A DNA stretch of 64,000 nt from Bacillus nitratireducens (GTDB taxonomy: Bacteria; Bacillota; Bacilli; Bacillales; Bacillaceae_G): positions 1-64,000 of the forward strand of contig NZ_MAOC01000027.1 in assembly GCF_001884135.1 (NCBI RefSeq). The letters are read 5' to 3'. Position numbers and translations under genes: made by a program. The notes under the pieces were generated by a model. It was not told where the DNA came from and made no database searches. It saw nothing but the letters and a program-made list of their open reading frames with translations. Shown one piece after another: positions 33,254 to 34,710 of the stretch; the stretch's first letter is position 1, and every line of letters starts with the position of its first letter.

Positions 33254-33265
33254 ATGATCAACTAA
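33254..33265 (+). CDS. Leader reading frame MIN of the MFS-vat operon
   Basis: ATG ATC AAC TAA, preceded by GGAAGGG 13 bases upstream. It codes the same Met-Ile-Asn peptide as the vmlR leader and, as there, its Asn and stop codons enter the first hairpin arm (33261-33272). Translation is inferred. Confidence 0.5.
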   Translation: MIN

Positions 33266-33426
33266 TTCTATTTGTAAGAGATCTTCGTTAAAAAACGAAA
33301 TATTCTTCTGAATAGGATTAGTCTGTACATTTATAGAAAAGGGATGTATTTCGCTCTGCGAATATATAGTCTTTTTATATGATTTGTGCTGCCTCCTGTT
33401 CAGAACATGAAATAGGAGGCTTTTTT
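33261..33426 (+). promoter_or_regulatory. Attenuator of the MFS-vat operon
   Basis: A three-state leader. A (33261-33272) pairs with B (33311-33322) over 12 bp with one wobble. B, extended to 33306-33317, can pair with C (33394-33405) over 12 bp with one wobble. C overlaps the 5' arm of the terminator GCCTCCT (33391-33397)/AGGAGGC (33414-33420), which runs into six T directly before ATG 33427. The terminator stem also buries the AGGAGG ribosome site, so control may act on both transcription and translation. Confidence 0.85.
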
Positions 33427-34710
33427 ATGTCGACAAATGTAGTAACGAAACAAAACAATGGGGTATCACAAGTATTAAAAAACCGGTTTGTACAAGGAAT
33501 TCTTGCATCAGCATTATTTTTACAAATTGGAATATGGGTTCGAAACTTTGCGGTATTACTGTATGTAATGGAAATGACAAAAGGTGATGCTTTTGCTATT
33601 TCAATGATTTCGGTTGCTGAATTTGCTCCCATTTTTATTTTCTCATTCATTGGTGGAACTTTTGCTGATAGGTGGAAGCCAAAGAAGACCATGATATGGT
33701 GTGAGACGTTAAGTTCTATTTCCGTATTCGCTGTATTAATTACTCTTATGTTTGGAACGTGGAAAATCGTGTTTTTTGTCACGCTTATTTCTGCAATCCT
33801 TTCGCAGTTTTCTCAACCATCTGGTATGAAGTTGTTTAAACAGCATTTATCAACGGAACAAATTCAATTAGCGATGTCTATATATCAAACAATATTTGCA
33901 ATTTTTATGGTGTTAGGACCGATTCTTGGAACATTTATTTTTCATAGTTTTGGAATTTATATTTCAATCATCATAACAGGTATCGCTTTTTTACTTGCAG
34001 CAGCTGTGTTGTTATTACTTCCGAAAGATCTTGAGAATGAAAATGAGAAGAAAGAAATCACTCTATTACAGGAAATGCTAGACGGTATTAAATACGTAAA
34101 AAAGAAAAAAGCATTAACTTTGCTAGGGCTTTGTTTTATGGCAGCAGGACTTGGTATTGGGTTAATTCAGCCACTAGGTATATTTATTGTAACTGAGCAG
34201 TTAGGGCTATCAAAAGAGAGTTTACAATGGTTACTAACAGTAAATGGTGCAGGAATGATTGTTGGCGGAGCTTTAGCGATGGTATTTGCGAAAAATATTG
34301 CACCGCAAAAGATGTTAATTGTAGGGATGCTCGGCCAGGCGATTGGCATTGGTATTATAGGTTATTCGGAAAATTTATGGGTAACACTTACAGCACAACT
34401 TTTTAGTGGGTTAGCTCTTCCGTGTATCCAAATAGGTATTAATATGCTCATTATTCAAAATAGCGATACTGATTTTATTGGTCGTGTAAATGGCATTTTA
34501 AGTCCACTATTCACCGGTTCAATGGTAGTAACAATGAGTGTAGCTGGTTCATTAAAAGAAGTGTTCTCATTAGGTACGATGTATGAAGGCACAGCTTTAC
34601 TATTTATAATTGGATTATTATTTATTTTACCTATATACAATTTAAAGCCAGTAGTAGCGGTAGAAAGTGAAATGAATAGTAAAGGAAGTGCTGTACAACA
34701 TGAATCCTAA
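33427..34710 (+). CDS. MFS transporter, antibiotic-efflux type
   Basis: A 427-residue major facilitator of the MFS_3/Mef-like group with about 12 helices. The conserved loop after helix two reads GGTFADRWKPKK. ATG 33427 follows AGGAGG by eight bases; an in-frame ATG at 33379 lies upstream of the terminator and is unlikely. It is first in an operon with the Vat acetyltransferase (11-base overlap) under an attenuator of the vmlR type. Export of a ribosome-targeting antibiotic is therefore likely; which one is not shown. Confidence 0.88.
   Translation: MSTNVVTKQNNGVSQVLKNRFVQGILASALFLQIGIWVRNFAVLLYVMEMTKGDAFAISMISVAEFAPIFIFSFIGGTFADRWKPKKTMIWCETLSSISVFAVLITLMFGTWKIVFFVTLISAILSQFSQPSGMKLFKQHLSTEQIQLAMSIYQTIFAIFMVLGPILGTFIFHSFGIYISIIITGIAFLLAAAVLLLLPKDLENENEKKEITLLQEMLDGIKYVKKKKALTLLGLCFMAAGLGIGLIQPLGIFIVTEQLGLSKESLQWLLTVNGAGMIVGGALAMVFAKNIAPQKMLIVGMLGQAIGIGIIGYSENLWVTLTAQLFSGLALPCIQIGINMLIIQNSDTDFIGRVNGILSPLFTGSMVVTMSVAGSLKEVFSLGTMYEGTALLFIIGLLFILPIYNLKPVVAVESEMNSKGSAVQHES

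What the first reader, a model, noticed from the sequence alone, without database searches (positions are those of the whole stretch)
33254..33427. MFS-vat operon has a leader of the same design 21 kb away, with the ribosome site inside the terminator
Seen: MIN frame at 33254; A/B of 12 bp; B/C of 12 bp; C overlaps the terminator arm; the terminator's second arm is the AGGAGG site itself and the T-run touches the start codon. It shares the 14-base block ATAGGATTAGTCTG and the ATGATYAACTAAT context with the vmlR leader, although the rest differs. The genes it controls, an MFS pump and Vat, act on the drug class VmlR protects against.
Basis: partly seen in the sequence, partly recalled or inferred. 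Interest (0 to 1): 0.82.

Follow-up and report, generated by a model that had tools for sequence, protein, structure and literature searches.

The report
Portable drug-sensing leader on resistance genes
The stretch before a drug-pump-like gene and a streptogramin-inactivating gene looks like an RNA switch, tripped when a drug stalls a ribosome on a three-codon mini-gene, and related switches sit in front of many unrelated resistance genes in relatives of Bacillus, which suggests that the switch is copied from gene to gene as a unit.

Summary
Confirmed. Window 33232-33427 holds a Shine-Dalgarno (SD) site, a Met-Ile-Asn mini-ORF, a stem A:B, an alternative 12-bp stem B:C, and a terminator whose 3' arm is the pump gene's own AGGAGG. 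The vmlR leader (11768-11977, Rfam ncr1575) is its relative; the Bacillus subtilis counterpart is experimentally known as uORF(MIN) (PMC9226507). The design is known; its use on an MFS-vat operon was not found in print in my searches.

Across 32 MFS leaders, B:C, A:B and the terminator covary; one position changes on all four strands together (T/A/T/A to C/G/C/G).

A covariance model from MFS leaders alone finds the vmlR leaders. Of 100 hits whose neighbours I read (not a random sample), 74 precede resistance families (62 ABC-F, 4 Vat, 4 Vgb, 3 LmrB-like, 1 Cfr), 18 other pump-like MFS genes, 8 other genes. Whole leaders are homologous between non-homologous genes: Vat/Vga, Vat/Vgb, LmrB-like/Vga.

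Most likely: a ribosome-stalling attenuator gating transcription and translation together, and a portable cassette serving drugs acting at the peptidyl-transferase centre. No expression was measured.

The parts
33234..33243 (+). Shine-Dalgarno site of the mini-ORF (GGAAGGGTGA)
   Evidence: sequence; AAGGGTG 90% or more conserved in 32 aligned leaders
33254..33265 (+). three-codon uORF ATG ATC AAC TAA (MIN)
   Evidence: sequence; three-codon uORF conserved, peptide variable
33261..33272 (+). strand A, 5' arm of the anti-antiterminator stem SL1; contains the uORF stop codon
33284..33299 (+). apical hairpin of SL1 (TTCGTT...AACGAA)
33306..33322 (+). strand B: pairs with A (33311-33322) when repressed, with C (33306-33317) when induced; overlaps the shared block ATAGGATTAGTCTG (33312-33325)
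33394..33405 (+). strand C: pairs with B (antiterminator) or, by its 5' part, with D (terminator)
33391..33426 (+). intrinsic terminator hairpin and T-run; its 3' arm D (33413-33420) holds the SD AGGAGG of the MFS gene
33427..34710 (+). MFS efflux-type protein, 427 aa, substrate unknown
34700..35332 (+). Vat family streptogramin A O-acetyltransferase, start overlaps the end of the MFS gene
   Evidence: NF000311 353.8 bits vs cut-off 300
11768..11977 (+). vmlR leader of the related design (Rfam RF02452 ncr1575), uORF MIN at 11800-11811
12007..13635 (+). VmlR-like ABC-F ribosome protection protein, 542 aa
   Evidence: NF000355 488.5 bits vs cut-off 380

Best explanation
A ribosome-mediated attenuator. 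Without drug, ribosomes initiate and finish the three-codon uORF and leave; B, emerging next, pairs with A (SL1); C then stays free to pair with D, so the terminator forms, ends transcription, and in any read-through transcript also hides the pump gene's SD. When a drug that blocks the peptidyl-transferase centre (pleuromutilin, lincosamide, streptogramin A) holds a ribosome on the first codons, its footprint covers A; B is left to capture C; D stays unpaired, so RNA polymerase reads on and AGGAGG is exposed, switching on MFS and Vat together. Shown here: anatomy, conservation, covariation, relation to the vmlR leader, spread over other resistance genes. Inferred: drug-induced stalling, termination, induction. 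The leader belongs to a widespread family that appears to move between unrelated resistance genes as a unit.
For: Covariation in 32 distinct MFS leaders: SL1 plus terminator 91.5% paired, 20 double-changed cells against a shuffled mean of 6.5, 0 of 500; B:C 95.6% paired, 11 against 1.9, 0 of 500; slid versions at most 51.8% paired. Coordinated change at columns 41/118/220/241: T/A/T/A in most, C/G/C/G in L081 and L121, so A, B, C and D moved together. Fitch changes on a 20-protein MFS tree: 3 at 115:223, 4 at 112:228, mismatched and one-sided states included. Over 94 leaders of many target classes SL1 with its apical stem is 94.4% paired with 123 double-changed cells against 31.8 (that alignment was fitted to the model). 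Transcripts ending just after C: unmasked, SL1 in 28 of 32 and B:C in 3 of 32; ribosome mask at codon 1, 2 or 3: SL1 in 0, B:C in 30, 30 and 31 of 32. The mechanism is experimentally supported for the B. subtilis vmlR leader (PMC9226507; passages, section 22), and an SD inside the terminator hairpin is described for cplR (PMC10201436, passages). Of 100 model hits whose downstream gene was read, 74 precede resistance families and 18 pump-like MFS genes.
Against: No transcript, termination or induction data for this leader. At equilibrium, full-length folds with a masked ribosome still keep the terminator in 18, 19 and 13 of 32 and form B:C in only 14, 13 and 19, so the model needs co-transcriptional order. 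Control masks away from the uORF also shift the balance: B:C in 13 and 14 of 32, SL1 in 19 and 18. The outermost A:B pair fails in 13 of 32. For SL1 plus terminator, the counts of pairs with a double change and of pair types do not beat the shuffles (79 and 103 of 500 reach them), and for B:C the count of pair types does not (235 of 500). The score is below Rfam's gathering score. No promoter found by the scan. Some MFS relatives have an altered uORF or leader (L097, L101, L147) and many more distant ones show none of the design.
Confidence: 0.87

Rival explanations
1. The leader senses slow translation initiation or ribosome trouble in general, not a drug class; peptide and drug identity matter little.
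For: Peptides vary widely (MIN, MII, MIF, MIY, MNN, MKN, MKY, MWN and others). PMC9226507 has a section headed that VmlR is induced by defects in translation (heading and passages; that ribosome assembly defects are among them is recalled).
Against: Target genes are mostly against peptidyl-transferase-centre drugs: ABC-F, Vat, Cfr, LmrB-like, plus Vgb which accompanies streptogramin A resistance.
Confidence: 0.2
2. A ligand-binding riboswitch or protein-bound terminator in which the mini-ORF is incidental.
For: Strong, conserved structure.
Against: A start codon with an SD upstream and a stop codon inside A are conserved while the SL1 loop varies in sequence and in length (module from about 80 to 150 nt); I saw no conserved pocket-like loop in the alignments.
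Confidence: 0.04
3. Convergent look-alikes: the MFS and vmlR leaders arose separately from a common way of building attenuators.
For: Different B:C register and different placing of the SD.
Against: A model from MFS leaders alone matches 68 of 80 pattern-selected loci (E up to 0.11) and the window's vmlR leader (48.7 bits, E 4.4e-6 in 0.7 Mb); those loci were preselected by a pattern that overlaps the model, but the hits in 150 of 397 Bacillales genomes were not. End-to-end leader homology between unrelated genes.
Confidence: 0.06
4. Only a passive terminator that keeps expression low, with translation of the mini-ORF having no regulatory role.
For: No induction data here.
Against: B:C covariation has no evident reason to exist in a passive terminator.
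Confidence: 0.03

Closest known systems
Bacillus subtilis vmlR leader, uORF(MIN) (PMC9226507; Rfam RF02452 ncr1575)
   Same: Three-codon uORF MIN with SD upstream; SL1 holding A and B; terminator; antiterminator using B. The window's own vmlR leader shares the ATGATYAACTAAT and ATAGGATTAGTCTG blocks.
   Different: C pairs with a different part of B; SD of the main gene lies in the terminator arm instead of a later hairpin; targets are an MFS pump and Vat, not an ABC-F; below the Rfam gathering score.
Clostridioides difficile cplR leader, uORF(MRI) (PMC10201436)
   Same: Three-codon uORF in a 5' hairpin; terminator hairpin that sequesters the SD of the main gene.
   Different: Controls an ABC-F in Clostridia; sequence relation was not tested.
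Other leader-peptide attenuators of resistance genes (erm, msrD, vga(A) type)
   Same: Drug-stalled ribosome selects between alternative RNA hairpins (recalled; listings only).
   Different: Leader peptides whose sequence dictates stalling (recalled); here length and position are kept and the peptide varies.

Membership tests
Rfam RF02452 ncr1575 (vmlR leader) | score at or above the gathering threshold (60 bits) | tested here: not met
   38.9 bits, E 1.8e-4, full model length 1-212
vmlR-type uORF attenuator (as a design) | SD plus three-codon uORF whose stop lies in the 5' arm of SL1 | tested here: met
vmlR-type uORF attenuator (as a design) | SL1 (anti-antiterminator) supported by covariation | tested here: met
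vmlR-type uORF attenuator (as a design) | antiterminator B:C excluding both SL1 and terminator | tested here: met
   four-strand change
vmlR-type uORF attenuator (as a design) | same B:C register and separate SD-hiding hairpin SL-4 | tested here: not met
   C = TCCTGTTCAGAA; SD inside terminator arm
vmlR-type uORF attenuator (as a design) | sequence homology of the SL1 module | tested here: met
   R1 finds window 11776-11873 at E 4.4e-6
vmlR-type uORF attenuator (as a design) | induction by lincomycin or pleuromutilin dependent on uORF translation | not testable with these tools
   needs a reporter assay
cplR-type dual attenuator | terminator stem contains the SD of the main gene | tested here: met
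   AGGAGG 33414-33419 in arm D
cplR-type dual attenuator | sequence homology to the cplR leader | not tested
   no cplR leader was fetched
Vat streptogramin A acetyltransferase | NCBIfam NF000311 cut-off | tested here: met
   353.8 bits vs 300

The most novel reading that the evidence does not exclude
A single family of antibiotic-sensing leaders forms a drug-class regulon across Bacilli: the same RNA cassette (SD, three-codon uORF, SL1, terminator) is transplanted as a unit onto unrelated resistance genes (ABC-F of the VmlR, VmlR2-like, Vga and Lsa kinds, MFS pumps of three kinds, Vat, Vgb, Cfr), up to three copies per genome seen, including a tandem relay form with two chained switch hairpins.
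Probability: 0.72. Interest if true: 0.76.

Novelty: new variant of a known kind. Interest (0 to 1): 0.64.

Why it matters
It would explain how Bacillus relatives switch on several unrelated defences against one class of ribosome drugs without any shared protein regulator, and gives a sequence handle (the leader) for finding inducible resistance genes, including unfamiliar candidates such as the nucleotidyltransferase-like, RibD-like and SDR genes under the same leader. The mutually exclusive four-strand pairing with natural compensatory changes makes the vmlR model testable by comparison, and the variable peptide with fixed length suggests that ribosome position, not nascent-peptide sequence, is what is sensed.

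Tried and rejected
The Rfam match alone was too weak to file the leader under ncr1575; the five other Rfam matches in the stretch had E of 0.33 or more. The guess that Vat always follows this MFS was rejected: among all fetched loci held only L085, L117, L272, L030 and L260 gave a Vat match, none of them an MFS locus, and 54 MFS loci there were longer than 3.5 kb (56 counted by the script, less L085 and L117); the MFS-Vat pairing is so far seen only in the window. The Priestia vgb-vat operon on plasmids (L085, L117) gave no match to the leader model at E 0.05. The phage collection gave no match to the leader. Identifying the host by plasmid similarity failed: 2 short Priestia matches at 81%. 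Full-length equilibrium folding was not decisive, so nascent-transcript folds were used and their controls told. The L236 product found no relative of known structure and no Pfam or NCBIfam family at the limits used. The three-codon length in 59 of 60 model hits is partly built into the model, because the ATG-to-TAATCC spacing is modelled; for L233 the script picked another frame, and a three-codon frame (MKF) is also present. The leader tree has 96 positions, low support in places and one antisense row (L098 1293-1383) left in; L257 was labelled VmlR there by its leader although the ORF behind it is not. The 100 hits tallied are not a random sample: of the first 60, 59 were taken outside the MFS places and one (L284) is such a place; the other 40 favoured high scores and genomes with several hits. 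The script missed leaders that are visible by eye (for example L127, L130, L144, L170, L187), and its 59 finds include repeated copies from one genome.

Full report
What is there. Between a cytochrome P450 gene (31924-33159) and an MFS gene (33427-34710) lies a leader with an SD (GGAAGGGTGA, 33234-33243), a three-codon ORF ATG ATC AAC TAA (33254-33265), and four strands: A 33261-33272, B 33306-33322, C 33394-33405, D 33413-33420. A:B is 12 bp, B:C is 12 bp with one G-U, C:D is the terminator. D contains AGGAGG, and the T-run 33421-33426 touches the ATG of the MFS gene. The fold of 33240-33430 has z -6.8, 0 of 200 shuffles as stable. Vat (NF000311, 353.8 bits, cut-off 300) follows with its start inside the end of the MFS gene.

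Relation to vmlR. The leader at 11768-11977 is Rfam ncr1575 at 195.8 bits and precedes an ABC-F protein (NF000355, 488.5 bits, cut-off 380). The B. subtilis counterpart has been dissected: uORF(MIN), SL-1 as anti-antiterminator, terminator SL-3, SD-hiding SL-4, translation of the uORF needed for lincomycin induction (PMC9226507; I saw passages and section 22). The MFS leader hits the same Rfam family below its gathering score (38.9 of 60). An SD inside the terminator hairpin is reported for cplR of C. difficile (PMC10201436, passages).

Conservation of the MFS leader. A scan of genome contigs for ATGATYAACTAAT-N40..70-ATTAGTC gave 80 loci, probably a cap; two, in Cytobacillus citreus and Peribacillus asahii, precede MFS proteins 70 and 66% identical to the window's. 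Of the 43 genomes searched in the family of the latter, 37 have a match to the MFS at E 1e-80, identity 56-70%; of 397 Bacillales genomes, 84 do at E 1e-100, identity 49-70%. A script found uORF, B and terminator in 59 upstream regions and not in 60 others; the 60 include distant paralogues without the design and some leaders the script missed. The 59 uORFs, not all independent, encode MII 19, MIN 15, MIF 6, MIY 6, MNN 6, MIC 2, MIK 2, and one each of MKN, MHN and MN, the last readable as MMN. Priestia plasmids carry the leader too.

Covariation. On 32 leaders less than 93% alike (chosen, aligned): SL1 plus terminator 91.5% of cells paired, 20 double-changed cells against a shuffled mean of 6.5 (0 of 500), though the counts of pairs with a double change and of pair types are within the shuffles (79 and 103 of 500). 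B:C alone: 95.6%, 11 double-changed cells in 4 pairs against 1.9 (0 of 500), pair types not above the shuffles (235 of 500), slid versions 35.5 to 51.8% paired. At columns 41 (A), 118 (B), 220 (C) and 241 (D), most leaders have T/A/T/A, L081 and L121 have C/G/C/G, and L082 has T/G/T/G, intermediate by G-U: the same position changes on all four strands and every alternative pairing survives. Other leaders break one or more of these pairs there (for example L143, L146, L164, L179 have T at 118). On a tree of 20 MFS proteins the columns 115:223 and 112:228 change 3 and 4 times, mismatched and one-sided states included; L081 and L121 are sisters there, so that event counts once.

Switching on paper. 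For nascent transcripts ending after C, SL1 forms in 28 of 32 and B:C in 3 of 32 without a ribosome; with a footprint at codon 1, 2 or 3, SL1 in 0 and B:C in 30, 30 and 31. Control masks over the SL1 loop or the 5' end give B:C in 13 and 14 of 32, so part of the effect is generic. With full-length RNA at equilibrium the terminator persists in 13 to 19 of 32 stalled leaders. The switch therefore rests on B:C forming before D is made.

One family, many genes. A model of the SL1 module from MFS leaders alone (R1) matches 68 of the 80 pattern loci (E up to 0.11) and the window's vmlR leader at 48.7 bits, and has hits at E 0.001 in 150 of 397 Bacillales genomes. A second model from 94 leaders (R2) has hits in 100 of 398 Bacilli genomes, up to three per genome. 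I read the downstream genes of 100 hits (60 of R1, 40 of R2; not all that were listed): 62 ABC-F, 15 MFS of the window's type (one a fragment), 4 Vat, 4 Vgb streptogramin B lyase, 3 LmrB-like and 3 Tet-like MFS, 1 Cfr, 8 others. Thus 74 precede resistance families and 18 pump-like MFS genes of unknown substrate. Of the 62 ABC-F, 59 whole ones were scanned: all 59 match the ribosomal-protection ABC-F family NF000355 at E 1e-115 or better; three (L297, L319, L324) are split or short and were judged by BLAST only. Other profile support: Vga 765.8 and 805.5 bits over a cut-off of 725 (L235, L286), Lsa 811.8 over 750 (L010, of the pattern scan), Cfr 603.2 over 550 (L304), Vat 344.7, 351.0 and 324.8 over 300 (L272, L298, L306). 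Below allele-level cut-offs: Vgb 545.5, 454.5, 388.7 and 379.3 against 600 (L255, L302, L309, L313), though Pfam Vgb_lyase is 430.7 over 50 for L255; LmrB 487.0, 453.6 and 339.5 against 800 (L234, L270, L318); the Tet-like L231 and L322 178.8 and 194.2 against 475, and L240 was scanned with Pfam only. The Vat of L260 reads as a 150-aa ORF only, 263.4 against 300. In L306 a Vat 71% identical to the window's stands directly behind a MIN leader. The eight others are an IS200-type transposase (L232), a nucleotidyltransferase-like ORF by my reading of its sequence only (L236), RibD-like proteins (L238, L299), a lipid-kinase-like ORF by my reading (L257), an alpha/beta hydrolase (L303), an SDR (L317) and an AraC-type regulator (L330).

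Transplantation. Whole leaders align end to end between genes that are not homologous: L272 (Vat) with L286 (Vga) over 264 columns ending just past the terminator; L260 (Vat) with L255 (Vgb) over 304; L234 (LmrB-like) with L235 (Vga) over 339, both from one genome, G106. In G655 the Vat leader L298 aligns with the Vga-like leader L297 over about 227 nt. Other cases show less: the Cfr leader L304 aligns with others over short stretches only. The leader tree mixes gene classes accordingly, with weak support at many nodes. Transplantation is the simplest reading; repeated gene replacement behind a resident leader is its twin and not excluded.

What is known and new. Searches of the held library brought up papers on the vmlR, VmlR2, LsaA and cplR leaders and, in listings and abstracts, none that speaks of a leader of this kind on MFS, Vat, Vgb, LmrB-like or Cfr genes; I read only PMC9226507 and PMC10201436, in part, and most subscription papers are not held, so priority is not settled. 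I rate the window element a new variant of the vmlR kind and the shared, portable family the more interesting result.

Noticed in passing
L232, L234, L235 (oriented positions about 85-400): Tandem relay: a second hairpin (CCTATTCAGA...TCTGAATAGGATTAG) between SL1 and the terminator, so that B1 could open it by pairing with its 5' arm and its 3' arm could then pair with the terminator arm; 3 clear cases among the 60 scanned (two more flagged, L249 and L271, are unclear; one search shows the sequences of the three).
   Followed up: partly
L334 2470-2700 (Planococcus plasmid NZ_CP025124.1): A vmlR-register leader with uORF MLN and terminator about 400 nt before an S41 peptidase gene, no resistance gene directly behind it.
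   Followed up: no
L303: An MIN leader, with imperfect C and D strands by eye, before a gene of the intracellular polyhydroxyalkanoate depolymerase family (393.3 bits, cut-off 300): an odd target or a decayed leader.
   Followed up: no
L236 1044-2153 minus: A 370-aa nucleotidyltransferase-looking protein under an MIN leader, without a Pfam, NCBIfam or PDB match at the limits used: candidate unknown resistance enzyme.
   Followed up: partly
window 35350-35401: A long inverted repeat (GTATCATACCTCC / GGAGGTGTGATAC) hides the ribosome site of the small ORF that starts at 35403 behind vat; no T-run follows (seen).
   Followed up: no
L085 2064-3630, L117 3064-4630: Priestia plasmids carry a vgb-vat operon with no match to the leader model at E 0.05.
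   Followed up: partly
L101, L097, L147: MFS orthologues whose uORF or leader is altered (L097 and L147, two copies in one genome, read ATGAAATATAAT with no stop at the fourth codon) while B and terminator sequences remain.
   Followed up: no
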